26,016 nt of DNA from Bacteroidaceae bacterium (lineage in GTDB: Bacteria > Bacteroidota > Bacteroidia > Bacteroidales > Bacteroidaceae). Position 1 is the stretch's first letter. Each line of letters opens with the position of its first letter. Location: NCBI GenBank assembly GCA_017619585.1, contig JAFZSA010000007.1:1-26016 (forward strand). Direction: 5' to 3'. Of this stretch, positions 1 through 26,016 are shown in pieces. The notes beneath the pieces are model-generated. The model made no database searches. It saw only the letters and a program-made list of their open reading frames with translations, and was not told the DNA's origin. Both the position numbers and the translations under genes were made by a program.

Positions 1-126
1 CCCCTCCCATCCTCCCCGTTAGGGGAGGTGACTAATGAGGGTATGGGTCAAAAGTTAATAATCATTTTTCTATAACATCCCCTCACCCTCCCTGACGGGA
101 GGGGCGGGGTGGGTCTTTTACTTCAG
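1..126 (-). repeat. 126-bp terminal repeat, left copy (GC-rich palindromic element at a stop codon)
   Basis: Bases 1-126 are identical to 25891-26016. Read on the minus strand, the element starts at the last codons of the 118-4440 gene (CTGAAGTAA) and continues AAGACCC. It then gives two perfect 7-bp hairpins: CCCTCCC-GTCA-GGGAGGG (86-103) and CCTCCCC-TAAC-GGGGAGG (11-28), separated by an AT-rich stretch. Neither hairpin has a T run, so this is not a classic intrinsic terminator. It could still form a 3' mRNA structure. It belongs to the same family as the elements after the stop codons at 8200, 11946 and 13981. Confidence 0.9.
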
Positions 127-7600: not shown

Positions 7601-7841
7601 CTGGTATTATACAGACAGCGGTAACTATGTGGCGTTCATCGGCCGTTCTGTAGTAGGCGGGCACTGGATGAAGGTTCTCCTGGACAAGTGCGTATCCGGT
7701 GAGTTGATAAATGGGATCGACGAAATTCATAATTCACAATTCATAATTCATAATGATGCTGTTTACAATCTGGCCGGTCAAAAGTTGTCAGCACCACAGA
7801 AAGGTATCAATATCATTAATGGTAAAAAGGTAGTTTATTAA
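4698..7841 (+). CDS. Secreted GtaA/DUF4965-family six-hairpin protein with two inserted galactose-binding modules
   Basis: This is a 1047-aa protein with a signal peptide (1-20, ending LQAQ). Residues 28-95 match the DUF4964 N-terminus (RLPSVPLISNDPYISYWSP, then HWTG). Two homologous galactose-binding-like modules follow (about 100-240 and 255-397); both carry IRR, YSHDD, YING, NVIA.HV and GGA.AD.GL motifs, so they arose by duplication. The DUF5127-like sandwich (about 405-545) and the DUF4965/DUF1793 helical region (about 575-985, with FAAHDIGTYPHANGQVY) complete the glutaminase A-like architecture. Fungal GtaA members are annotated as glutaminases; the substrate of Bacteroidales members is uncertain and could be a glycan. 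The sorting tail (1021-1047, AVYNLAGQ...KGINIINGKKVVY) suggests T9SS-type export. Residues 1009-1019 are encoded by a heptamer array. Confidence 0.88.
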   Translation: MNKTLTFLFALLTSVVLQAQSDYFTPYKQTSLRLPSVPLISNDPYISYWSPYNKLTGGTTRHWTGAVKAMDGILRVDGKNYRFMGTQKDVLLKAIAPMGNQGRWVAKIKRSNAAANWYEKDASESGWATGYGSFGTKSEYEGVTTEWNDISEYYIRRHVTLTEEDLKSDLWIVYSHDDNFELYINGIKLAGVTNGNTWKQNVKVHLQGASRDALVAGDNVIAFHVINTRGGALADVGLFRNSLGFHPGMQTIAAMADEGPWTARVRNATLSGTAWTTESYDDTGSTWQDKQGAFGTSDQPNINTPWTATGSDIYIRRRITLTAEDLQRDLHVIYSHDDVCEGYINGRKIFSTGETWVNNVDYQLTDADKAVLHEGENVIAYHVHNTTGGAMADIGLYYSTTGEQVAEQTNCHVLATNTYYKFTCGPVTLDVVFTAPMLMKDVDLMSTPINFISYQVTSNDGEEHDVQFYFATSPELSVNNNMQATVSSVTTQNGIRYIKSGAKTQKVLGKAGDLICIDWGYLYIPEINGTITIGDRNEVANTFATTGKLPEPSNTSISSTEEAEMPLLAFSKDMGKVSQASSYMMIGYDEVKDMRYMNVDYPGYWARNGKTIFTAFEELHDRYDQIMTDCQAQDKQIYDDGLSAGNAKYAELLSGCYRHVIAAHKIFQDNKGNLLFFSKENNSNGCVNTVDLTYPSAPLFLIYNTDLMKGMCTSILDYCESSRWGFDFAAHDIGTYPHANGQVYSITKPDANGGFAGNMPIEESGNIVVLAAAISLIDDDLTWANKYWKTLKTWTDYLVENGLDPENQLCTDDFAGHLAHNANLSLKAIMGVAGFALMCQQKGDTEAYEYYIGKAKYMATEWVKLAKDGAHYKLAFDKSGTWSQKYNMVWDKVWQTKLFPDAVYKQEMVYYNGQLKTYGLPLDNRSLYTKTDWVSWTACLGTQNQFNTHMDRLYKYANETKSRVPLSDWYYTDSGNYVAFIGRSVVGGHWMKVLLDKCVSGELINGIDEIHNSQFIIHNDAVYNLAGQKLSAPQKGINIINGKKVVY
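7724..7751 (+). repeat. AATTCAT heptamer array inside the coding region, before the sorting tail
   Basis: There are four units: AATTCAT, AATTCAC, AATTCAT, AATTCAT. They are translated as part of EIHNSQFIIHND (residues 1009-1020), between the catalytic body and the sorting tail. Unit length is not a multiple of three, so gain or loss of one unit shifts the frame. Confidence 0.9.
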
Positions 7842-7875: not shown

Positions 7876-7879
7876 AATA

Positions 7880-7919
7880 AAATAGACCGTTGGGATTTTT
7901 CCAACGGTCTATTTTTCTT
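7880..7919. terminator. Bidirectional intrinsic terminator
   Basis: A perfect 14-bp stem (7880-7893 with 7901-7914; arms contain AGACCGTTGG / CCAACGGTCT) with a 7-nt loop is followed by T-rich sequence on the plus strand. On the minus strand it is followed by TTATTTTATTC-type sequence. It lies between the convergent 4698-7841 gene and the tRNA-Leu and can serve both. Confidence 0.85.
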
Positions 7920-7921
7920 TG

Positions 7922-8003
7922 TACGCCTGATAAGACTCGAACTTACACGCCTCACGGCACTAGATCCTAAGTCTAGCGTGTCTACCAATTCCACCACAGG
8001 CGC
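7922..8003 (-). tRNA. tRNA-Leu (anticodon UAG)
   Basis: The minus strand folds as a type II tRNA. The acceptor arms are GCGCCTG/CAGGCGT (first pair G-U) with discriminator A, as expected for leucine. The D arm contains GGTAGACAC. The anticodon stem CTAGA/TCTAG surrounds loop CTTAGGA, giving anticodon TAG, which reads CUA. A long variable arm (TGCCGTGAGGCG) and a T arm with TTCGAGTC follow. CCA is not encoded. It has its own promoter at 8023-8030 and shares the terminator at 7880-7919. Confidence 0.95.
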
Positions 8004-8022
8004 ATTCTTGGTTAAGACTGCG

Positions 8023-8030
8023 CAAAGGTA
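8023..8030 (-). promoter_or_regulatory. Promoter -7 box of tRNA-Leu
   Basis: TACCTTTG on the minus strand matches TAnnTTTG exactly and lies 20 bp upstream of the tRNA 5' end. A clear -33 TTTG is not visible. Confidence 0.65.
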
Positions 8031-8096
8031 TAACTTTTTGGCGAAATTGGGAAATAAAATCAAGAAAAATATTTGGCAACAACTCCTCATTCTTTC

Positions 8097-8155
8097 GGGC
8101 GGCTCTCGTTATGACGTTATAACGTTATATCGTTATTACGGTTTTTTGGCCGCCC
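8097..8155. repeat. GGCGG-bounded octamer element, copy 1
   Basis: This 59-bp element is bounded by GGGCGGC and its reverse complement GCCGCCC. Inside, an octamer NNCGTTAT repeats with a variable dinucleotide: TCGTTAT, GACGTTAT, AACGTTAT, ATCGTTAT, TACG. It includes the perfect palindrome TATAACGTTATA. It lies between the tRNA-Leu promoter and the 3' end of the alpha-galactosidase gene. Its 30-bp core is identical to that of the copy at 21657. Confidence 0.88.
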
Positions 8156-8199: not shown

Positions 8200-10440
8200 T
8201 TACTTCTTTATCTTCAAATATTTCACACCATGGGTGGGGATGAAGTAATTCATATCAGTAGTGCTCAAGTCCTGCTGGCGCCAGAGGTCACGGATACTCT
8301 GTAGATTATTGATACCCATTTCCTTGAAATACTTCTTGAAATCAATGCGGGCATCATCCTTGCCTACGTTAAAGATGCCTATTGCATAGCTGCCATCACT
8401 CAGAGGGCGACTCCAAATCTGGATACTGCCATCCAATACCACACGCTGTGCCTGCTTACCTAAGATATCTTGGTTAACGGCATTCACCTCATGGTTACAA
8501 AGCAGGCTAACAGTAAACTCATCCATCTGGGCAATATCACAGCCAATCAGCATATTGCTGGCCAAGAGAGTCCACAGACTAATATGAGTGTACTGCTCGT
8601 CAGGAGTAAGACGACTGTCTCGCAAATTATTGCTCCAACCTACCTTACCTACGATTAACATGTCGGGGTCATTCCAGTGACCGGGTTGTGCGTATGGATA
8701 GAGCTCGGGCTGACGGCAGAAACCTATGTCATACAGACTCTCCCATGTATCAGTGATATCACCAGTTGTACGCCATGAGTTGGCATCTACTGCATGCCCC
8801 CACTTCCATACCTCAGCCATACCATACTGGCAAAGGCTGTAGAAGATATCACGTGGCTGCTGACGCAGACAACGCTCCATCAACAGATAGGGACGTACAT
8901 AGCTGGCAACAGTCTTGTTGTCGGGTTCCGTAGCATGCTTACGTCCATAGCCACACCAGTCATACTTCAAGTAGTCAACACCCCAACTGTTGTAGCTTTC
9001 GGCATCCTGTAGCTCATGGTCGATAGAGCCCAAGTATCCACCGCAGGTCAGGTCGCCAGGTGAAGAGTAGATTCCAAACTTCAGACCTTCTGAGTGCAAC
9101 CAGTCACCCAATTCCTTCATGCTGGGGAACTTCTCGTTCACTGCAATGGTACCATCAGCATTACGCTTGGGAGCTTCCCAACCGTCATCAATGTTCATAT
9201 AGCAGTATCCGTAGTCCGCCAAGCCCTTCTCAATGAGCGCCTTGGAACTGCTTATTACCTTGTCCTGTGTAACGCTCAGACCCCAGCAGTTCCAACTGTT
9301 CCATCCCATAGGAGGAGTAAGACCAATCTTACTGCCGCAGCGTACAGTAAATCGTTGTGTTTGTTCACCCTTTGCATTCTTGGCCTTTACAGTAAAGGTA
9401 TAAGAACCGACTTTTTCCAAAGAACCGCTCAAGGCGCCATTATCGGGATTCAGTGTAAGCCCCTTTGGCAGATCATCGGAAGAGAACTTCATGGGTTTCT
9501 CACCGCTCACGCCAAAGCGGAAGTGAATAGGAGAACCGGGACGTACTCCGTACAAAGGAGTAGTATTAAATCTTGGCTCTGCTGGCGCAGCAGGTGTAAG
9601 AATATATTTGGGAATGTACTTTGTAGTGGTACTGAGACCTGTCTTACTCTCTGTGAAGGTTGCAATGATGCGAACCATCTGATGATTGTCGTATGGTATG
9701 CTAATTGCACTGCTCTTCTTGGCATTCACAGAAACCCTCTGGCTCTTCTCTGTCAGCACCTTACCAGTCTCGGGATCCTGAACCTGAATAGTATATACGC
9801 CGCTCTTGGTAGCATCCATCTTGCTATTCAGCGTGCAAACACATTGGCTGCTTCCTGTTACTTGCCCCTTGCCCCTTGCTCCTTCAGAGATACTGATACT
9901 CAGGTTGTCAATAGTATTAGGTACGCGTACGACGATAGGACCTTGGAACATACCACCAGGATCGCCTGCATTGTAAACCCTTACCGCCAACACATTGTCG
10001 GCATCCCATCTGATGAGATCACTATTTGCCTTAACACGATATTGACGTAAGGTGTTCCACTTGCCCTCATAGCCTTTGGGATCAGAAGGGAAACTACCTG
10101 TTTTACCTATCATCTTGCCGTTCAGATATACCTCATCGGCATCGTCAATCTTTCCCATTATGAAATCAACTGTCTCTTTCAGATCGGATTTCTCCAGCAG
10201 AGTTTTGGGAATAGTCACATGGTAGCGATACCACCCGAAACCGTTCTCACATTTAACACCCTGAGATGTCCACGTTGTAGTGTTGCTGATTTCACGCCAA
10301 ACACTCTCGTTAATGTTTGCACCTGCCCATGCAGCATCATCGCCAACATGGAATTTGCCCTTTTCTACAGAGACATCCTGTGCAGAAATCGGGAGTAAAA
10401 TGAAACTGATAATAATCAGTACAGAAAAGAAATGTTTCAT
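8200..10440 (-). CDS. Secreted GH27 alpha-galactosidase with N-terminal galactose-binding and Ig-like domains
   Basis: This is a 746-aa protein with a signal peptide (1-20, ending PISAQ). A galactose-binding-like jelly-roll domain spans about 25-175 (VYLNGKMIGKTG, NVLAVRVYN). A sandwich region lies at 195-285. A putative-Ig (He_PIG-type) domain spans about 290-368, with LPKGLTLNPDNGALSGS. The GH27 barrel begins at LTPPMGWNSWNCWG (373-386). By family analogy the nucleophile is Asp494 in LKYDWCGYGR and the acid/base is Asp561 in RTTGDITD. The product should remove terminal alpha-galactose from glycans, outside the cytoplasm. There is no sorting tail; the protein ends KYLKIKK, so a periplasmic location is likely. 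Residues 187-193 are encoded by a heptamer array. It has its own promoter at 10539-10569. Confidence 0.93.
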   Translation of the reverse strand: MKHFFSVLIIISFILLPISAQDVSVEKGKFHVGDDAAWAGANINESVWREISNTTTWTSQGVKCENGFGWYRYHVTIPKTLLEKSDLKETVDFIMGKIDDADEVYLNGKMIGKTGSFPSDPKGYEGKWNTLRQYRVKANSDLIRWDADNVLAVRVYNAGDPGGMFQGPIVVRVPNTIDNLSISISEGARGKGQVTGSSQCVCTLNSKMDATKSGVYTIQVQDPETGKVLTEKSQRVSVNAKKSSAISIPYDNHQMVRIIATFTESKTGLSTTTKYIPKYILTPAAPAEPRFNTTPLYGVRPGSPIHFRFGVSGEKPMKFSSDDLPKGLTLNPDNGALSGSLEKVGSYTFTVKAKNAKGEQTQRFTVRCGSKIGLTPPMGWNSWNCWGLSVTQDKVISSSKALIEKGLADYGYCYMNIDDGWEAPKRNADGTIAVNEKFPSMKELGDWLHSEGLKFGIYSSPGDLTCGGYLGSIDHELQDAESYNSWGVDYLKYDWCGYGRKHATEPDNKTVASYVRPYLLMERCLRQQPRDIFYSLCQYGMAEVWKWGHAVDANSWRTTGDITDTWESLYDIGFCRQPELYPYAQPGHWNDPDMLIVGKVGWSNNLRDSRLTPDEQYTHISLWTLLASNMLIGCDIAQMDEFTVSLLCNHEVNAVNQDILGKQAQRVVLDGSIQIWSRPLSDGSYAIGIFNVGKDDARIDFKKYFKEMGINNLQSIRDLWRQQDLSTTDMNYFIPTHGVKYLKIKK
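9861..9881 (-). repeat. CTTGCCC heptamer array inside the GH27 gene
   Basis: Three units (CTTGCCC, CTTGCCC, CTTGCTC on the plus strand) encode the Gly/Arg/Lys-rich linker GARGKGQ at residues 187-193, between the N-terminal jelly roll and the next domain. Confidence 0.75.
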
Positions 10441-11097: not shown

Positions 11098-11105
11098 TAA
11101 CTTTT

Positions 11106-11133
11106 AATTCATAATTCATAATTCATAATTCAT
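11106..11133. repeat. AATTCAT heptamer array between divergent promoters
   Basis: Four exact AATTCAT units lie between the rplS -7 box and the -33 box of the downstream 5'-nucleotidase gene. Confidence 0.92.
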
Positions 11134-11136
11134 CAT

Positions 11137-11168
11137 TTTGTTGTTATAAGTGTTTTTTTGTACTTTTG
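11137..11168 (+). promoter_or_regulatory. Promoter of the split 5'-nucleotidase genes
   Basis: TTTG (11137-11140), a 20-nt spacer and TACTTTTG (11161-11168) match the consensus. The -7 box lies downstream of an in-frame ATG at 11158, so transcription should begin too late to use that codon. This supports translation from 11188. Confidence 0.75.
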
Positions 11169-12901: not shown

Positions 12902-12906
12902 GGTAT

Positions 12907-12936
12907 AAAAAAAAGACGGTTGTCATCCCGACAACC
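12907..12936 (-). terminator. Intrinsic terminator of a short minus-strand transcript
   Basis: On the minus strand GGTTGTC-GGGAT-GACAACC (12936-12918) is followed by GTC and eight T (12914-12907). On the plus strand only a weak T-rich tail follows, so the signal is mainly for the minus strand. Confidence 0.75.
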
Positions 12937-12970
12937 AATCTTTCCTTAACCTTAAACTAATACCATGAAA
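12907..12970 (-). ncRNA. Candidate small RNA downstream of nagB
   Basis: An exact -7 box TACCTTTG (12984-12977), with TTG about 20 nt upstream, would start a transcript near 12970. A strong terminator ends it near 12907, giving about 64 nt. The unit lies after nagB on the same strand and contains no convincing reading frame. It could be an independent sRNA or a 3' decoy. I cannot assign it to a known RNA family. Confidence 0.45.
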
Positions 12971-12976
12971 ACGCTG

Positions 12977-13980: not shown

Positions 13981-15594
13981 TTACTGTTTTGTATTTTTTG
14001 GACTTGCGCCCGTTATTGCATCATGTTCTGTTCTCGGCTTCTGATGACGATAGGTAGCATCTGTAGGAATATACTTTGCATTAACTGCCTCCGTCTCATA
14101 TACGCACTTGCTAATATCCGCCGTAGAGATAGTAACGGAATCCTTGGTAAGCTCAGGTACATTGTAACTCTTGAGCAAAAGGATATTCATTTCAGGATCT
14201 TCCTGTGGAATGACAAATGCCTTATGAGCCTTACCGTTCTTATCGAAGTATGCCAGAAAAGCTCTTGAGTAGTTCCCGTCCATCCTGCGACTGGCAAACA
14301 CCATCCAACGTCCATTGCTACTCCACGAATGGAAACTTTCTGCATCATCACTATTAGCATCCTTAAGTGCATAGCAACTGTCCGTCTTGAGGTCTTTCAC
14401 CCATAGGTCTGCACTTTTATGCCAAATATGGAACTGGCCATAATCGCCTTGTGTATACAACACATATCGTCCATCCGGACTAACTCTGGGTACACTGACA
14501 CTCTTATGTCTGGACGCAGCATCCACTTCTAACTTAGGTTCACCGAACTTACGTGTCTTTGCATCAAAGGTTATAGACATCAGATTGTAGTATATACTAT
14601 CATAGCGAAACATCAACTGATGAGCTCTGGTACTGTCAGGCATTGAATAATCCAATATATTTGACAAATCCGCGTTACAGTAGTAAAGTTTCTTTCCGTC
14701 TGGCGCCCAGCACGGGAAGGTCTCCAAATCATAAGGGGTACGTACGATGTGACTAACCTCATTCTTCGTTACATCATATAACAGAAGATCGCTGGACTCG
14801 TCCAGCACCTCAATCTTTTCTGCATGATAGAGATGGAAGACCTGCCCCGTCTTGTTAGTGGAGAAAGCTATCAGGTTCTCTGTAGGATGCCATGACGGAT
14901 AAACGCCAGCTGAGATGATGGTGCTATCCTTCATCTGAACCTTGTGTGCCTTCCCATTCTGAACGATTACCGTTCCGCCATGATTGGCCCTGACGTGGAA
15001 CATCATGTCAGCAGAGCTGTTGCTTCTGTAGTTGTGACAGTTGATGCAGTGGTTGACATTATTCTGATACTCACGGTTATTCTCATATATAGTATGAACA
15101 TCCCAGTTAGTAAGGTTACGCTGATAAATACCTAACTGACGGTATAACTCGTAACTGGGCTGTATCAGACGATAACTCAAGAAAGCGTCAACAGGCTCCT
15201 CTGCTACACTGAGCGTATATGGTTTGTAACAGAACCACTTCTCTCCCCTTCTGGCATATACAGAAACACTTATATCTGTTCCTTTGCAGGTTGAAAGCAA
15301 CTTCTTCCATGCTGACATATCCATCTGCATAACACCATCCTGCCCTGCAGAGACCAATAACTCGGCACCATTTCCTTGCAGATGTGCAACAAAGGCATCT
15401 GCCAATGAGTCACGTACTATAAAGTTGAGCGGGGCAATGTTAGGTGGTACTATGATATCTGTATAATCAGGATAAATCTCAGCTTTCTCCTCGAGTTGTG
15501 AAAACTGAGCAGGAATCTGAGCAGTAGGTTTACCACAAGCTACCAGCAGGACAGCTACTGATGCAATAAGGATGTATTTTAATTCATAATTCAT
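13981..15594 (-). CDS. Lipoprotein with TolB/PD40-like beta-propeller and a CxxCH motif
   Basis: The 537-aa product has a lipoprotein signal with lipobox LVAC (Cys20). An N-terminal region (25-160) is followed by HCINCHNYR; the CxxCH at 183-187 is a heme c attachment motif. Beta-propeller repeats then run from about 225 to 490, with PSWHPTENLIAFSTN, PCWAPDGKKLYYC, PRVSPDGRYVLYT and SWSSNGRWMVFASRR. It should be anchored in a membrane facing the periplasm or outside. A role in electron transfer or sensing is inference. It follows the DUF6057-like membrane protein by 102 bp, and the two may work together. The start codon and the MNYELKY N-terminus lie inside an AATTCAT array. Confidence 0.82.
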   Translation of the reverse strand: MNYELKYILIASVAVLLVACGKPTAQIPAQFSQLEEKAEIYPDYTDIIVPPNIAPLNFIVRDSLADAFVAHLQGNGAELLVSAGQDGVMQMDMSAWKKLLSTCKGTDISVSVYARRGEKWFCYKPYTLSVAEEPVDAFLSYRLIQPSYELYRQLGIYQRNLTNWDVHTIYENNREYQNNVNHCINCHNYRSNSSADMMFHVRANHGGTVIVQNGKAHKVQMKDSTIISAGVYPSWHPTENLIAFSTNKTGQVFHLYHAEKIEVLDESSDLLLYDVTKNEVSHIVRTPYDLETFPCWAPDGKKLYYCNADLSNILDYSMPDSTRAHQLMFRYDSIYYNLMSITFDAKTRKFGEPKLEVDAASRHKSVSVPRVSPDGRYVLYTQGDYGQFHIWHKSADLWVKDLKTDSCYALKDANSDDAESFHSWSSNGRWMVFASRRMDGNYSRAFLAYFDKNGKAHKAFVIPQEDPEMNILLLKSYNVPELTKDSVTISTADISKCVYETEAVNAKYIPTDATYRHQKPRTEHDAITGASPKNTKQ

Positions 15595-15615
15595 AATTCA
15601 CAATTCATAATTCAA
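15581..15615. repeat. AATTCAT heptamer array over the lipoprotein start codon
   Basis: There are five units: AATTCAT, AATTCAT, AATTCAC, AATTCAT, AATTCAA. The ATG of the lipoprotein gene (15594-15592) is part of the second unit. The array sits 9 bp from the GGCGG-bounded element at 15625. Confidence 0.92.
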
Positions 15616-15624
15616 TATTTCGAT

Positions 15625-15688
15625 GGGCGGTTTTTTCGTCATAACGTTATTACGTTATATCGTTATAACGATAATTTTAAGGCCGCCC
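15625..15688. repeat. GGCGG-bounded octamer element, copy 2
   Basis: This 64-bp element is bounded by GGGCGG and CCGCCC. The octamers are TTCGTCAT, AACGTTAT, TACGTTAT, ATCGTTAT and AACGATAA. It lies between the stop codon of the DUF6057-like gene and the AATTCAT array of the lipoprotein gene. Confidence 0.88.
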
Positions 15689-15696
15689 CATTATTT

Positions 15697-17259
15697 CTAG
15701 TTCACTCCCGAATTAGAGGTTTCCAGACTGGTATATCCCTTCTTCGTGGCTTTCAGGTTACCGAAGAAATAATAATAAGGATAATACCCTTTGTATTTAC
15801 CGAACAGCTCGTATGCATGGCCAGGACGGTCACTCATATAGGGCTGTACATTATTCATGAAATTCTGAATACGGGGGATGCGCAAGTCAAGACCGCTAAA
15901 GTTCTTCTCCAAACCAGGATTCTTGGTTGCCGCCAACAAGATACCATCTGCTATGATATCCGGGGGTGTTGTGCCTACAATAGGCTCCAAACGTTCCATG
16001 AATGAAGGCATCAGTTTGGTATATAGACATACACAAAGCGAATTGTACAAGGCATTGACACTTCTACCTTCTACCAAATTCAAGTTATAACCCATGAATA
16101 CAGGTTGCTGATACATACTCTCGAAACTGTCATGAAGAGGTTCTGTGAGTCGGATCTTAGCAATCTCAGGGTCTGCATTTACCAAAGAGTCATTACCTAC
16201 CATAGCGCTGTATTTCTTACAGAAATCACCCTCAAAGGGTACATCGCTAAGAATACGAAGGTACTTACGACAGAGTTCCCACTCTCCACGCATCAGCGAA
16301 CTCTTGATATACAACTTCATTGTACGCAGCGTTGGTCCTGACATAACCATCTGCTCCATGCAGGAATGCATACAGGACTCTGCAAATCCTCCATGATAAC
16401 ATCCCTCGGGAATATACATGCTGCTGGCATTGTTATGTCCACCATCCATACCATGAATATAAAGGGAATCGTAATCAAGTCGGATATCATACATACGATA
16501 GGCAATCTGATCGGTATGTACCAAGGCTATGGCATACATACATGCCATAGGGCGGTTGCTCTGATAGGAATGGGCTCGTGCCAGTTTCTGAATACCCTCC
16601 CAATCCTGCTGCTGTTCCATGGAGGACAATTGGGTAATGACACGTACATAGGGACGCTTTACTTCGTTGAAAGTCACTATAGCAGCAAAGCCCAAAATGC
16701 AGACTGCCAACTGAACCAAGTTGTCGCGCTGGCTCTCATCAACAGGAATACCTATCAGAGCAGGAACCTTCTTTCTGCTGAAGCTCCTTATCATAATACC
16801 CCAAATGGCAAACACAAGAAGCACCAAGAAGGGTATTCCCATGATATATCCCGTTTCAGCTTCAAAGAATATGTCAAGCCCATAGAAAGTAACGGTTCCC
16901 ATATAGGCCAACGCAGGAAGATACTGAATGGCACGCCATTTTGCCTTCAGACGCCAGCAATAGCCTATAAGCCAAGTACCCAATGTGAGCATCAGCGCCA
17001 TTAGGAATCCACCTAATAGAGGGTACTTAAAGGCCATCAGTAAAACTCTGCCTATATAACGCAGACTTCCAAAGGAACACGAGAGGATATAATCCATCTG
17101 ACGTGTATCAGAGACCCAAAAACTATATTCGCGACTCAGATGGAAAACACTTCCATAATAAAATGCTGCCCATGCCAGTACTGCCACGAAGAACAGCGGC
17201 AGTACCGGCACGCGAAGGACAGATTTCTTTTCTTTTTTGTTAGGCTTTACTTGTGCCAT
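15697..17259 (-). CDS. Polytopic membrane protein, DUF6057-like
   Basis: The 520-aa product has a basic N-terminus (KPNKKEKK). About five membrane segments follow at residues 17-37, 78-100, 111-130, 138-157 and 184-201. The long C-terminal part (about 210-520) is soluble and helix-rich, and looks TPR-like (MEQQQDWEGIQKLARAHS). It resembles Bacteroidales proteins annotated DUF6057, whose function is not known to me. The start codon is 2 bp after the M60 peptidase stop codon, so the two are almost certainly translated from one mRNA. The lipoprotein with the CxxCH motif follows. A link to export or assembly of the peptidase is conceivable but unproven. Confidence 0.75.
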   Translation of the reverse strand: MAQVKPNKKEKKSVLRVPVLPLFFVAVLAWAAFYYGSVFHLSREYSFWVSDTRQMDYILSCSFGSLRYIGRVLLMAFKYPLLGGFLMALMLTLGTWLIGYCWRLKAKWRAIQYLPALAYMGTVTFYGLDIFFEAETGYIMGIPFLVLLVFAIWGIMIRSFSRKKVPALIGIPVDESQRDNLVQLAVCILGFAAIVTFNEVKRPYVRVITQLSSMEQQQDWEGIQKLARAHSYQSNRPMACMYAIALVHTDQIAYRMYDIRLDYDSLYIHGMDGGHNNASSMYIPEGCYHGGFAESCMHSCMEQMVMSGPTLRTMKLYIKSSLMRGEWELCRKYLRILSDVPFEGDFCKKYSAMVGNDSLVNADPEIAKIRLTEPLHDSFESMYQQPVFMGYNLNLVEGRSVNALYNSLCVCLYTKLMPSFMERLEPIVGTTPPDIIADGILLAATKNPGLEKNFSGLDLRIPRIQNFMNNVQPYMSDRPGHAYELFGKYKGYYPYYYFFGNLKATKKGYTSLETSNSGVN

Positions 17260-21656: not shown

Positions 21657-21715
21657 GGCGGCCTTCGATATGACGTTATAACGTTATATCGTTATTACGA
21701 CATTTTCTGGCCGCC
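21657..21715. repeat. GGCGG-bounded octamer element, copy 3
   Basis: This 59-bp element is bounded by the perfect inverted repeat GGCGGCC/GGCCGCC. The octamers are TTCGATAT, GACGTTAT, AACGTTAT, ATCGTTAT and TACGACAT. It lies 12 bp after the stop codon of the PgpH-like gene. Confidence 0.9.
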
Positions 21716-21727
21716 ACGCTTCATTCG

Positions 21728-23791
21728 TCACTTACTTAGCTCAGGATACTGTATACGTGTATGGTACATGGTACGAAGCTTAGTCTTGAAGACCTCTTTG
21801 GCCTCAGCTATCTCCAGGAAGGAAATGGGACACTGTGCAAAGTAGCCACTTGTAACTTGGTCGTCAATAATCCTGTCAACCATACCGTTCAGACTTTCCT
21901 CGGTGTATTCCGGCAGACTGCGGGATGCCGCCTCTATAGAATCGGCCATCATCAGAATAGCCTGCTCCAGTGTTGTAGGATTGGGACCGGGATAAGTGAA
22001 CACGCTCTTGTCCACCTCCTTGTCAGGGAAATCATTCTTGTATGAAACATAGAAATACTTGGCCATACTCTGCCCATGATGAGTAGAGATGAACTCCTTT
22101 ATCACAGAAGGCAACTGATATTTGTCGGCCAGACGTAAACCATTCCTTACATGCTGAATAATAATCTGTGCGCTCTGCTCATATGGCAGATTATCATGCG
22201 GGTTGGTACCCGACTGGTTCTCGGTGAAGAAAACAGGGTTCTCAAGTTTTCCAATGTCGTGATACAAGGCACCGGTACGCACCAACTGGCTCTTAGCACC
22301 TATACTGTTAGCGACTTCTGCTGCCAGGTTAGCAACCTGCATACTGTGTTGGAAGGTGCCCGGAGCTTCTTCCGAAAGTCTGCGAAGTATGGTGTTATTG
22401 ATATTCGAGAGCTCTACCAATGTAACATTTGACGTAAAGCCGAAGATGCGCTCTATAGGCATGAGCAGGGTGTAAGACAACAAAGACAGAACTCCAGCTA
22501 CCAGAATATAGATATACGTCCATCTGTCAAATCCATTAGAGCTATACGGACTGCCATGCAACAATTCGATGCAGAAATAGGTCACCAAGGCTGCTACAGT
22601 TACCAAAACTGCCGCGCGAACCAACTCACTACGCTGCGAGAGTTGTCGCAGGCTGTATATGGCTACTAGACCAGCCACCAACTGAGTGACAATGAATTCG
22701 TACGGATGGTTAAGCACCAATGCACAAGTAAGTATAGACAGTGCATGGGCAATAAAGGCCGTTCTACTGTCCATAAATACACGAATGAAGATGGGCAAGA
22801 TACAATAGGGAATAACGTACACGCTCATCAAACTGTGTGACATCAGTGTGAATGTAATTATCGGGAATAGCAGACACTGACTTATCACCAGCATAACAGT
22901 ACGTGGATTAGCCAGATAATCACTACGGAATTGCTCAAAGTAGAACAAGAGCAGAATCATCAGAATGGCGATGTACGTTACCTGACCGCCTAATAGCAGC
23001 AGGCGTTCCTTATTGCTCATAGAACGGCTCTGTTGGAAACGCTCCAATGACTGCAAGACGCAATATGTATATTCATCCACAATCTGTCCGTGATCAACTA
23101 GTTTCTGACCTACCTGAACCTGCCCGATGTATGGTACCAGTTGGGCATCCACCTCTTGTCGTTGCTGTAGGGATTTCTCAGCATCATAAATCAGGTTGGG
23201 CTGTATGAATTTTTCCAGCCCACACCGCATCAGTTTGCTATGATTGTAATGTGTGCTATCCACCTCAGCCATCATGTATTCATAGGCTGTTTTCTCTGTA
23301 AACAATTGTTTCACATATCGGGGTTGCGACTCGTTATTCTCATAAAGCCATACCTGTCGTGTATTTTCCTTTTTCAGCACCTCGTAGTCCTCGGCCTCTA
23401 TAATACCCTGGGCATACAGATATCTTAGCTTCTCTAGCAGATGTGGCAGATAATAAAAAGGTATCCCCTCGCCTACCATAGACTTCAAGGCATCTTTCAT
23501 CTGAGCAGCCTGCTTCTCATAGACAATATCCTTGTACTCAAAATATGGCTCATAATAGTTACGGAGGCTATCGCTCTCGCGCTTCAGTTGAGCATCACTC
23601 TTATACACAGGAAAACTGTCTTGAGCAATCAGCTGCGAACCATCCCAAGGTTCTCCCACCTTGTACTCATATTTACTATAACCGCCCTTTGGCAGGAAGA
23701 CGGTCAGGATGACTATCATAGCTATCAGTCCAGAGATCCTATACAGGTACTCTTTCTTGCTGATTTTTCTTTGTCTATTGTATCGGCTCAT
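21728..23791 (-). CDS. pgpH: PgpH-like 7TM-HD domain phosphodiesterase
   Basis: The 687-aa product has an N-terminal membrane segment (about 18-35, ISGLIAMIVILTVFLP) and an extracytoplasmic 7TMR-HDED-type domain (about 38-265). A block of about seven membrane helices (about 265-455) precedes a cytoplasmic HD domain (about 475-650). Metal-binding HD residues are His511-Asp512 in LYHDIGKLENP, with FQHSMQVANLA and STHHGQSMAKY contributing further histidines. PgpH relatives hydrolyse cyclic di-AMP; that activity is inferred here from architecture only. It is divergent from gltX and carries an AATTCAT array in its leader. Confidence 0.88.
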   Translation of the reverse strand: MSRYNRQRKISKKEYLYRISGLIAMIVILTVFLPKGGYSKYEYKVGEPWDGSQLIAQDSFPVYKSDAQLKRESDSLRNYYEPYFEYKDIVYEKQAAQMKDALKSMVGEGIPFYYLPHLLEKLRYLYAQGIIEAEDYEVLKKENTRQVWLYENNESQPRYVKQLFTEKTAYEYMMAEVDSTHYNHSKLMRCGLEKFIQPNLIYDAEKSLQQRQEVDAQLVPYIGQVQVGQKLVDHGQIVDEYTYCVLQSLERFQQSRSMSNKERLLLLGGQVTYIAILMILLLFYFEQFRSDYLANPRTVMLVISQCLLFPIITFTLMSHSLMSVYVIPYCILPIFIRVFMDSRTAFIAHALSILTCALVLNHPYEFIVTQLVAGLVAIYSLRQLSQRSELVRAAVLVTVAALVTYFCIELLHGSPYSSNGFDRWTYIYILVAGVLSLLSYTLLMPIERIFGFTSNVTLVELSNINNTILRRLSEEAPGTFQHSMQVANLAAEVANSIGAKSQLVRTGALYHDIGKLENPVFFTENQSGTNPHDNLPYEQSAQIIIQHVRNGLRLADKYQLPSVIKEFISTHHGQSMAKYFYVSYKNDFPDKEVDKSVFTYPGPNPTTLEQAILMMADSIEAASRSLPEYTEESLNGMVDRIIDDQVTSGYFAQCPISFLEIAEAKEVFKTKLRTMYHTRIQYPELSK

Positions 23792-23797
23792 CTTGTC

Positions 23798-23832
23798 AAT
23801 TCATAATTATCAATTCATAATTCATAATTACG
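23798..23832. repeat. AATTCAT heptamer array in the pgpH leader
   Basis: Five units, two of them degenerate (AATTCAT, AATTATC, AATTCAT, AATTCAT, AATTACG), end 6 bp before the ATG of the PgpH-like gene. Confidence 0.85.
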
Positions 23833-23868: not shown

Positions 23869-23881
23869 CATAGAAAATCAT

Positions 23882-23902
23882 AATTCATAATTCATAATTC
23901 AC
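23882..23902. repeat. AATTCAT heptamer array between divergent promoters
   Basis: Three units (AATTCAT, AATTCAT, AATTCAC) lie between the -7 boxes of the PgpH-like gene and gltX, covering the expected -33 positions of both. Confidence 0.88.
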
Positions 23903-23941: not shown

Positions 23942-23958
23942 TCCGCCACGCTGGCGGA
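23942..23958 (+). promoter_or_regulatory. Hairpin in the gltX leader
   Basis: TCCGCCA-CGC-TGGCGGA is a perfect 7-bp stem with a 3-nt loop and no T run. It shares the GGCGG motif that bounds the octamer elements. Confidence 0.5.
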
Positions 23959-23983: not shown

Positions 23984-24043
23984 GGCGGTTAAATAGCCCG
24001 ATATAACGCTATAACGATATATCGAAATAACGAAGAAACCGCC
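23984..24043. repeat. GGCGG-bounded octamer element, copy 4
   Basis: This 60-bp element is bounded by GGCGGTT/AACCGCC. The octamers are more diverged: CCCGATAT, AACGCTAT, AACGATAT, ATCGAAAT, AACGAAGA. The NNCG spacing of 8 is retained. It lies in the gltX leader, 17 bp before the ATG. Confidence 0.8.
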
Positions 24044-24048
24044 CAAAA

Positions 24049-24076
24049 GAATTATGAATTATGGATTGTGAATTGA
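24049..24076. repeat. AATTCAT-family heptamer array over the gltX start codon
   Basis: In the inverse orientation the units are GAATTAT, GAATTAT, GGATTGT and GAATTGA. The gltX ATG (24061-24063) overlaps the second and third units, and residues 1-5 (MDCEL) come from the array. Confidence 0.82.
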
Positions 24077-25629
24077 ATAAAGTAAGGGTAAGATTTGCCC
24101 CAAGTCCTACTGGTCCGCTGCATATTGGTGGCGTAAGGACCGCGTTATACAACTACCTTTTTGCACGCCAGCATGGCGGCGATCTGATCTTCAGAATCGA
24201 AGATACTGATAGCGGACGATTCGTTCCCGGTGCCGAGGAATATATCATTGAAAGCTTCCGTTGGTTGGGCATTAAGTTTGACGAGGGTGTCAGCTTTGGT
24301 GGCTCACACGGTCCGTACCGTCAGAGCGAGCGCCGTGACATCTACAAGAAATATGTACAGCAGCTCTTGGATAACGGAAAGGCTTACATCGCCTTTGATA
24401 CACCAGAGGAGCTGGATGCCAAGCGTGCTGAGATAGAGAACTTCCAGTACGATGCCAGCACCCGTATGCAGATGCGCAACTCACTCTCTATGTCCAAGGA
24501 GGAGGTTGACAAGCTGATTGCTGAAGGTAAGCAATACGTGGTTCGTTTCCTTATCGAGCCCGGACGTGATGTATTGGTTGACGACCTGATTCGTGGTGAG
24601 GTACGTATCAACAGTAGCATCTTAGATGACAAGGTACTCTACAAGAGTGCCGATGAGCTGCCTACCTACCATCTGGCCAACATCGTTGATGACCATCTGA
24701 TGGAGGTTACCCATGTAATACGTGGTGAAGAGTGGTTGCCCAGTGCGCCCTTGCACGTTCTGCTTTATGAAGCATTCGGATGGGCAGACACTATGCCACG
24801 CTTCGCTCACCTGCCCCTCTTGCTTAAACCCATAGGCAATGGTAAACTCAGTAAGCGCGATGGTGATAAATTAGGATTCCCCGTATTCCCCTTGGAGTGG
24901 CACGATCCCAAGACAGGAGAGATTTCAAGCGGATACCGCGAGAAAGGCTACCTGCCCCAAGCTGTTGTTAACTTCCTGGCACTGCTGGGTTGGAACCCAG
25001 GCAACGACCAGGAGCTGATGACACTGGATGAGATGGTGAAACTGTTTGACCTGAGCAAGTGCTCTAAGAACGGTGCTAAGTTCGATTATGTGAAGGCAGC
25101 CTGGTTCAACCACCAGTACCTTATCCAGCAGCCCGACGAGGCATGGGCACCAGCCTTTGACAAGATACTGAAGGCTGAAGGCATCAATGCCACTACCGAA
25201 CAGGAAGCCGAGGTAGTACGTATGATGAAACTCAAGGTCATTGAGTATGTAGATGGTCAGGGCAACAAGCGCAAGCGTAATATCAGTTTTCCGTCTGACC
25301 TCTGGCCTCTTACCCGTTTCTTCTTTGTTGCACCTGAGAGTTTCGACCGCGAGGATAAGTTCATCCGTAAGAACTGGACAGAGAATACTGCTGCTGAGAT
25401 GCAGCAGTTCTGCGAGGTGTTGGAAGGCATTCAGGACTTCAGTGTAGAAGGCATGAAGGCTGTTGTAGATCCATGGGTAGAGACATCAGGTCTGCGTCCC
25501 TGGAACGCATGGCGTATCTGTCTGGTAGGTGCCGGTCAAGGTCCTGACATGTATGAATTAGCCGCATTCTTGGGTAAAGAGGAAACCCTGAAGCGCATGA
25601 AGTTTGCAATAGCATTTTTTCAACGATAA
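24061..25629 (+). CDS. gltX: Glutamyl-tRNA synthetase
   Basis: The 522-aa class I enzyme charges tRNA-Glu with glutamate. It opens [21 protein letters not shown]; the HIGH motif appears as HIGG at residues 21-24. The KMSKS motif appears as KLSKR at 262-266. [23 protein letters not shown] and the C-terminal anticodon-binding region are intact. It is slightly longer than usual. No other ATG precedes the conserved block, so the start at 24061 stands. Unusually, both ends of the reading frame lie in short-repeat arrays: the first residues in an AATTCAT-type array, and the last codons (Gln-Arg-stop) in a hexamer array. Essential and normally single-copy. Confidence 0.97.
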
Positions 25630-25890: not shown

Positions 25891-26016
25891 CCCCTCCCAT
25901 CCTCCCCGTTAGGGGAGGTGACTAATGAGGGTATGGGTCAAAAGTTAATAATCATTTTTCTATAACATCCCCTCACCCTCCCTGACGGGAGGGGCGGGGT
26001 GGGTCTTTTACTTCAG
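25891..26016 (-). repeat. 126-bp terminal repeat, right copy
   Basis: Identical over all 126 bases to 1-126. The last nine bases (26008-26016) read CTGAAGTAA on the minus strand, the last codons of a protein ending Leu-Lys. It is therefore either the same gene end as at 118 or a second gene with the same ending. Confidence 0.92.

What the first reader, a model, noticed from the sequence alone, without database searches (positions are those of the whole stretch)
8097..8155. New-looking family of ~60-bp elements: GGCGG inverted repeats around an NNCGTTAT octamer array
Four copies (8097-8155, 15625-15688, 21657-21715, 23984-24043) share the plan GGCGG..., four to five octamers with CG at a fixed 8-bp spacing and a variable leading dinucleotide, ...CCGCC. 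Copies 1 and 3 share a 30-bp identical core. All are intergenic. The defined ends with a variable tandem interior resemble neither a simple microsatellite nor a REP element. It could be a mobile palindrome, a DNA-binding array or a structured RNA.
Basis: seen in the sequence. Interest (0 to 1): 0.8.

Follow-up and report, generated by a model that had tools for sequence, protein, structure and literature searches.

The report
Gene-end hairpins holding four octamers
Some rumen bacteria of two distant groups carry, often just after the ends of genes, a small DNA element in which a short paired stem encloses exactly four 8-letter units that obey one strict spelling rule; that rule is kept while the free letters change, so the element probably does something, but what reads it is unknown.

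Summary
The four copies are real and far above chance (0 in 200 simulated windows). They belong to a larger family with a strict grammar: GC-rich complementary arms of variable sequence, a long spacer (mostly 9-12 nt), exactly four octamers CG-DD-AT-HH plus a closing CG, a short spacer (0-6 nt), and the second arm. Arms go with the number four (34 of 38 stem-flanked arrays; 55 of 169 unflanked ones). The searched arm type occurs in 8 of 139 genomes of one Prevotella-type genus and in 10 of 28 of an unrelated phylum, but in 3 of 395 across Bacteroidota (two chance-like). Many elements lie directly after a stop codon, oriented with that gene; two convergent gene pairs carry head-to-head doublets. 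In nine orthologous pairs the CG/AT skeleton changed at 0 of 162 sites, the free letters at 31 of 144. Free letters disfavour internal folding. Copies within a genome show little sign of recent copying, yet presence varies, including one clean empty site. Best reading: a gene-end stem-loop presenting four binding units to an unknown factor, in RNA or DNA. It is not a simple microsatellite, matches no Rfam family and is not a RAYT-linked REP. Function is inferred, not shown.

The parts
8097..8155 (-). Copy 1: arms GGGCGGC/GCCGCCC, long spacer 8, four octamers, short spacer 3. Read on the minus strand it lies 44 nt after the stop of the alpha-galactosidase-like gene 8200-10440(-) and upstream of tRNA-Leu(-).
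   Evidence: not present in the aligned interval of G005, where the tRNA-Leu stretch is inverted
15625..15688 (-). Copy 2: arms GGGCGG/CCGCCC, long spacer 12, four octamers, short spacer 6. Read on the minus strand it lies 8 nt after the stop of the DUF6057 gene 15697-17259(-), before gene 13981-15594(-).
   Evidence: the element is letter-identical in G005
21657..21715 (-). Copy 3: arms GGCGGCC/GGCCGCC, long spacer 9, four octamers, short spacer 2. Read on the minus strand it lies 11 nt after the stop of the 7TM-HD gene 21728-23791(-).
   Evidence: present in G005 with two changes, both in one arm
23984..24043 (+). Copy 4: arms GGCGGTT/AACCGCC, long spacer 8, four octamers, short spacer 4. 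It lies between divergent genes, 17 nt before the start called for gltX 24061-25629(+), so it is not at a gene end.
   Evidence: not testable in G005, whose contig ends before this place

Best explanation
It is a cis-acting gene-boundary element. Shown by sequence: complementary GC arms enclose exactly four strand-symmetric octamers CG-DD-AT-HH, often directly after a stop codon and oriented with that gene (arm, long spacer, array, short spacer, arm); the CG/AT skeleton is conserved in place while the free letters drift; the free letters disfavour internal folding. Inferred: once transcribed, the arms pair into a stem that presents the array as an open loop, and a dedicated factor binds the four units and marks or protects the 3' boundary (mRNA 3' end, or separation from the abutting gene; a convergent pair may carry one unit for each gene, head to head). 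Whether the bound form is RNA, single-stranded DNA or duplex DNA is not settled.
For: Arms and the number four go together: 34 of 38 stem-flanked arrays against 55 of 169 without arms; with arrays chosen without regard to arms, 15 of 20 four-octamer arrays against 1 of 9 others in G005, and 8 of 61 against 1 of 79 in the scan set. Skeleton changes 0 of 162, free letters 31 of 144 in nine orthologous pairs; 0 of 54 against 10 of 48 in the three pairs found by flanks alone. Arms keep complementarity through different sequences. Upstream gene co-directional in 20 of 28 and 15 of 21 elements, with the element at -1 to 11 nt from its stop in 11 of those 20 and 11 of those 15. Whole elements fold better than shuffles (z -3.5 to -5.4 for the window copies) and arms form in 54 of 57 folds, while cores fold worse than D/H-preserving shuffles on both strands.
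Against: The octamer rule equals its own reverse complement, which single-strand recognition does not ask for. Imperfect arm pairs were too few to show G-U use (1 G-U, 1 A-C). Copy 4 lies before a gene start, and 8 of 28 and 6 of 21 elements do not follow a co-directional gene. Several members are orthologs or halves of doublets, so the counts are not independent. Other genomes do without the element at the same site. No expression data and no candidate factor.
Confidence: 0.42

Rival explanations
1. Duplex DNA site: a protein binds the four strand-symmetric octamers in double-stranded DNA at gene ends and acts as a roadblock or insulator for transcription from either side; the arms are secondary or act as a cruciform.
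For: Rule CG-DD-AT-HH is its own reverse complement; a single element can fill nearly the whole gap between convergent stops (1-6 nt on one side and 8-16 nt on the other in L199, L220, L228, L216, L229, L230); little sign of G-U pairs in arms; folding is disfavoured alike on both strands.
Against: Complementary change of the arms has no obvious role in duplex DNA, and a cruciform with a loop of about 47 nt is costly (general knowledge); consistent orientation of the spacers relative to the upstream gene.
Confidence: 0.23
2. Non-autonomous mobile element (MITE- or REP-like) that inserts at gene ends and whose skeleton and arms are needed by its mobilising enzyme.
For: Clean empty site: G008 lacks the doublet that G164 has, flanks 94-95% identical; absent in G095 where G004 and G002 have it; different elements at one site in different genomes; two near-identical copies 1.8 kb apart in L201; core of copy 1 exact at another G005 place; slight excess of identical cores, 2 pairs against 0.11 expected.
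Against: Otherwise core distances follow column shuffles and the identical cores have different arms and spacers; resident copies keep the skeleton while free letters change; Y1 transposase over cut-off in only 4 of 18 carriers. No other transposase family was searched.
Confidence: 0.2
3. Neutral minisatellite: octamer slippage product that happens to sit between GC palindromes, common in these AT-rich spacers.
For: The same bacteria carry many unflanked octamer and heptamer arrays between genes, with 2 to 12 octamers.
Against: Fixed number four with arms, skeleton conserved in orthologs, same grammar in two phyla with different free letters; 0 elements in the reversed-sequence control against 63 candidates.
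Confidence: 0.07

Closest known systems
[quoted passage not shown] passages and supplement legends read)
   Same: Multicopy sites with four tandem octanucleotide repeats, paired on opposite strands; function unknown, binding by IHF/HU proteins only predicted by its authors.
   Different: Consensus GTTGCTYN is not strand-symmetric and the outer two repeats are poorly conserved; the passages mention no GC stem closing one array and no stop-codon placement. The alignments themselves were not seen.
BrickBuilt MITE of Porphyromonas gingivalis (PMC4596501; abstract and one section read)
   Same: Tandem repeat inside an element with small inverted-repeat ends, intergenic, in Bacteroidales.
   Different: 23-nt unit, 1 to 22.8 repeats, leader and tail with homology between copies, 84-991 nt. 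Here 8-nt units, number fixed at four, about 60 bp, little homology between copies beyond the rule.
REP elements, GTAG- and CGTC-tagged (PMC3733652; abstract and passages read)
   Same: Located downstream of genes, between co-directional or convergent genes, often near or overlapping stop codons, often as inverted neighbours.
   Different: REPs are 20-40 bp palindromic repeats with a GTAG or CGTC tag; here the arms differ in sequence and enclose a loop of about 47 nt made of four octamers.

Membership tests
REP/REPIN with RAYT | Shared palindrome sequence with a GTAG or CGTC tag | tested here: not met
   Arms vary (GGCGGCC, GGCCGCC, GGCCGC, GGGCGCC, GCGGCGG, CGCGCCGC and others) while staying complementary. 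The tag was judged by eye on the aligned elements; no tag search was run.
REP/REPIN with RAYT | RAYT-type Y1 transposase (PF01797) in carriers | tested here: not met
   Over cut-off in 4 of 18 element-carrying genomes (6 of 18 at E 0.001 or better) and in 10 of 20 others.
REP/REPIN with RAYT | Position downstream of genes, co-directional or convergent neighbours | tested here: met
MITE | Many near-identical copies with conserved terminal inverted repeats and target-site duplications | tested here: not met
   Copies differ much as column shuffles do and arms differ; a possible 2-bp AG repeat at the one clean empty site proves nothing. Exceptions: L201 pair, copy 1 core in L179.
Simple microsatellite | Variable copy number, no fixed ends | tested here: not met
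   34 of 38 armed arrays have four octamers; complementary arms.
Intrinsic terminator | GC hairpin with short loop followed by a T run | tested here: inconclusive
   The scan lists none of the four window elements, but it allows loops of 3-8 only; by eye no T run follows the 3' arm of copies 1-4. Several G006-phylum orthologous spacers hold the element and a separate hairpin followed by T residues (seen by eye).
Integron attC | Core sites RYYYAAC/GTTRRRY and an integron integrase (recalled, from no call) | not tested
   No integrase search was made.
Any Rfam 15 family | Match at the gathering score | tested here: not met
   Only tRNA and FopS were found in the window; the elements of other genomes were not scanned.

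The most novel reading that the evidence does not exclude
A fixed-number recognition code: a stem displays four units CG-DD-AT-HH, 18 specified letters at 4-nt steps, read by an unknown multivalent factor shared by two distant lineages, with duplex or loop-loop recognition explaining why the code equals its own reverse complement. It would be a new class of gene-end signal in bacteria, defined by grammar and not by sequence homology.
Probability: 0.33. Interest if true: 0.85.

Novelty: new variant of a known kind. Interest (0 to 1): 0.72.

Why it matters
Small gene-end palindromes are known mostly as families of sequence copies. This one is held together by a grammar (complementary arms, exactly four strand-symmetric octamers) that persists while the free letters change, in two distant groups of bacteria whose genomes come largely from ruminant guts. 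If a factor reads it, that factor is a new multivalent RNA- or DNA-binding system and possibly a new way of marking gene ends. The split into skeleton and free letters makes the question directly testable with point mutants.

Tried and rejected
Internal hairpin of the array: not supported. On the Prevotella side free letters are less complementary than shuffled in the full fold-back register (z -2.5); the second phylum (+1.9) and the pooled set (+3.3) are positive, but there genomes of different GC are mixed. Within-element shuffles give mixed signs (N1-N4 z +2.6 and -2.2 in the two clades, others between -1.4 and +2.1). Cores fold worse than D/H-preserving shuffles in both clades. Mutual information between free positions: best of 120 pairs p 0.005, nothing after correction.

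Recent copying: (two identical core pairs against 0.11 expected, the rest as shuffled; L201 pair; core of copy 1 exact in L179).

G-U against A-C in the arms as a test of RNA against DNA: too few imperfect pairs (1 and 1, two others).

Covariance model: not built, because MAFFT did not put the arms in register.

Literature: in the listings of seven searches I saw no description of this element; only followed the Geobacter lead. Listings were capped (for example 12 of 95), and the library lacks most subscription journals. PMC2884548 was read in passages only and concerns variable segments in general.

The 57 elements include 8 with one skeleton mismatch, two of these being L046 read out of phase on both strands; the 49 with a perfect skeleton are those. 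In one search three of 41 arrays above the score were dropped by hand as AT-rich chance pairs (L013, L043, L062), and 6 of intermediate score are in neither group. At least six of the 63 candidates look like such chance pairs (L013, L026, L035, L043, L058, L080). In one search, 7 of 57 were dropped for short flanks and 6 of the rest overlap mechanical ORFs; genes there are simple longest ORFs. The GGCGG pattern misses other arms, so carrier counts are lower bounds.

Full report
OBSERVATION. CGNNATNNCGNNATNNCG with up to one mismatch has 13 matches in the window, 12 in the four copies, against 0.44 expected from shuffles. Four complete elements are present and none in 200 first-order Markov simulations of the window. 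Each copy has complementary arms, exactly four octamers and a closing CG.

ORGANISM AND RELATIVES. No whole genome is held for the window. The viral collection gave 13 stretches, not studied further. One hit genome, G005 (locus L047, Prevotellaceae MAG SRR12081302_bin.49), is a close relative: window 14000-16000 is 91% identical to G005:C25, and long blocks of the window align to that contig at 85-93%. Copy 2 is letter-identical there and copy 3 differs at two letters of one arm. Copy 1 is not in the aligned interval, which is locally rearranged. Copy 4 cannot be judged, because the contig ends before its place.

THE FAMILY. In G005 the three-octamer pattern with up to one mismatch has 72 matches a strand and its backward control 0. 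Arrays with their flanks show a fixed plan: arm, long spacer (7-16 nt, mostly 9-12; the letter before the first CG is T in 35 of 49), four octamers, CG, short spacer (0-6 nt; the letter after the last CG is A in 42 of 49), arm. Of 38 stem-flanked arrays 34 have four octamers, of 169 arrays without arms 55 do. The link also appears when arrays are chosen without looking at arms: 15 of 20 four-octamer arrays in G005 have arms against 1 of 9 others, and 8 of 61 against 1 of 79 in the scan set, where one of the 8 and the single other are AT-rich chance types. Swapped-flank controls give 0.205 and 0.011 for the four-octamer groups; the first is high because arms in G005 resemble each other. A scan of the loci then held gave 63 candidates (53 with a perfect skeleton, at least six chance-like) against 0 in the same sequences reversed.

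ARMS. GGCGGCC/GGCCGCC is the commonest type found, but GGCCGCC/GGCGGCC, GGCCGC/GCGGCC, TGGGCGCC/GGCGCCCA and TGGCCGCT/AGCGGCCA occur in the same genome, and GCGGCGG, CGCGCCGC, GCGCCGCC, CGCCGCC and GGCGCGC types in the second phylum. Complementarity is kept while sequence changes. Of 57 elements 53 have perfect arms; many were found with a pattern that asks for GGCGG and CCGCC, and the score favours perfect arms.

CODE. In two clades the octamer reads CG-DD-AT-HH (D not C, H not G). In the second phylum (23 elements, 92 octamers) the two letters after CG are never C, and G follows AT in 2 and 1 of 92. On the Prevotella side (26 elements, 104 octamers) the exceptions are C 1 and 5, G 6 and 0. 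The rule equals its own reverse complement. Free letters show no consistent pairing (mixed signs given under Tried and rejected). Cores fold worse than shuffles that keep D and H positions: mean z +0.70 and +0.72 on the two strands of the Prevotella side, +0.40 and +0.55 in the second phylum, standard errors 0.15-0.20. Arms form in 54 of 57 minimum-energy folds. As whole elements the window copies fold better than shuffles, z -3.5 to -5.4.

DISTRIBUTION. GGCGG..two octamers..CCGCC hits 5 of 14 genomes chosen from array hits, 8 of 139 of the genus of G005, 10 of 28 of the phylum of G006 and 3 of 395 drawn from the phylum of G005; two of those three matches lack the four-octamer plan, and the backward control there has one hit. 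Other arms are missed, so these are lower bounds. In the second phylum free letters are often G or C, as in CGGGATCACGGGATTACGGAATCTCGGGATCTCG, so AT-richness is not what is shared.

PLACEMENT. With the long spacer as the 5' side, the upstream gene is co-directional in 20 of 28 elements (Prevotella side) and in 15 of the 21 with a known upstream gene (second phylum, 22 in all). In 11 of the 20 and 11 of the 15 the element starts -1 to 11 nt from the stop codon. On the Prevotella side 16 of 28 lie between two co-directional genes; in the second phylum 13 of 22 lie between convergent genes (7 of 57 dropped for short flanks; some members are orthologs or halves of doublets). Copy 4 is an exception: divergent genes, 17 nt before gltX. 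Doublets of opposite orientation that share the middle arm lie between convergent genes at one orthologous place of G164 and G171; a similar doublet is in G172. Genes next to the window copies are of unrelated kinds, which speaks against a pathway-specific regulator.

EVOLUTION. Nine orthologous pairs: skeleton 0 of 162, free letters 31 of 144 (p 1e-11); three of the nine show no change at all. The three pairs found by flanks and not by the octamer pattern: 0 of 54 against 10 of 48 (p 3e-4). Not every skeleton is perfect: one flank-found group shares CGAAACAT and another CGATGTTT. Sites turn over: G008 has a clean empty site where G164 has a doublet, flanks 94-95% identical; a G164 site is shorter in G008, not cleanly; G095 lacks the element of G004 and G002; at the L195 site only G004 and G095 of the 30 genomes whose loci were fetched have it, one of the 30 having no sequence beyond the gene. 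At one site different genomes carry different elements. Among 17 window and G005 elements core distances follow column shuffles apart from an excess of identical pairs (2 against 0.11), and those have different arms and spacers. Signs of copying: two near-identical copies 1.8 kb apart in L201, and the core of copy 1 exact in L179 of G005.

UNFLANKED ARRAYS. Octamer arrays without arms are common in the same bacteria: 143 arrays in the 119 loci of the scan (armed ones included), 25 inside mechanical ORFs. Between co-directional genes 65 run with transcription, 8 against, 11 undecided; where oriented with a neighbouring gene they lie a median 12 nt after the upstream stop and 21 nt before the next start. 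The armed element may be a specialised form of this habit.

MECHANISM. Shown: grammar, frequent gene-end placement, conservation of the skeleton in place, complementary arms, disfavoured internal folding, turnover. Inferred: a factor reads the array. Arms that change in concert speak for a folded single strand, most simply the transcript; the strand-symmetric code speaks for duplex or loop-loop recognition. I put a stem-loop boundary element with an unknown factor first (0.42), a duplex DNA site second (0.23), a mobile element third (0.20) and a neutral minisatellite last (0.07).

KNOWN SYSTEMS. In placement it is like a REP (PMC3733652, passages), but it lacks a shared palindrome sequence, and a Y1 transposase is over cut-off in only 4 of 18 carriers against 10 of 20 others. 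The nearest printed likeness seen is the Geobacter metallireducens class 1 sites with four tandem octanucleotide repeats (PMC2700814, passages), with a different, non-symmetric consensus. BrickBuilt (PMC4596501, abstract and one section) has longer units in variable number. The window copies match no Rfam family at the gathering score. The listings of searches showed no description of this element.

Noticed in passing
window 1-126 and 25891-26016: Perfect 126-bp direct repeat at the two ends, as in a circularised contig, although the genes are chromosomal in kind (gltX, ribosomal protein L19, tRNA-Leu). In G005 the sequence is nearly colinear across the joint, but gltX does not align there.
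   Followed up: partly
window 7724-7754, 11105-11137, 15580-15614, 23796-23829, 23878-23901, 24049-24074: Heptamer arrays AATTCAT/ATGAATT; two overlap likely start codons (gene 13981-15594(-) and gltX). Other heptamer and octamer arrays of different motifs fill the orthologous spacers of related genomes.
   Followed up: no
window 7876-8070; L171 12126-12320: The tRNA-Leu stretch is inverted between the window and G005, next to copy 1.
   Followed up: no
window 12905-12974 (-): Rfam FopS, a Bacteroidetes family of paralogous small RNAs (RF04319, 63.4 bits).
   Followed up: no
L301, L303, L311, L312: A second octamer type, about CGTNACGN, inside GCGCGCC-type arms at the same gene ends in the second phylum (read by eye); its units are palindromic too.
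   Followed up: no
L010, L024, L059, L085, L119: Unflanked octamer arrays in what looks like the rpsK-rpsD spacer of several genomes (genes recognised by eye from recalled start peptides, not by a search).
   Followed up: no
window 23942-23958 (-); L172 near 7920: Short GC hairpin TCCGCCAGCGTGGCGGA with a T-rich tail beside copy 4; G005 has a GGCGGCTCCGCCGC palindrome inside a heptamer array in the corresponding spacer.
   Followed up: no
L201 3934-4001 and 5764-5831: Two near-identical elements 1.8 kb apart, alike about 16 nt and 5 nt beyond the arms.
   Followed up: no
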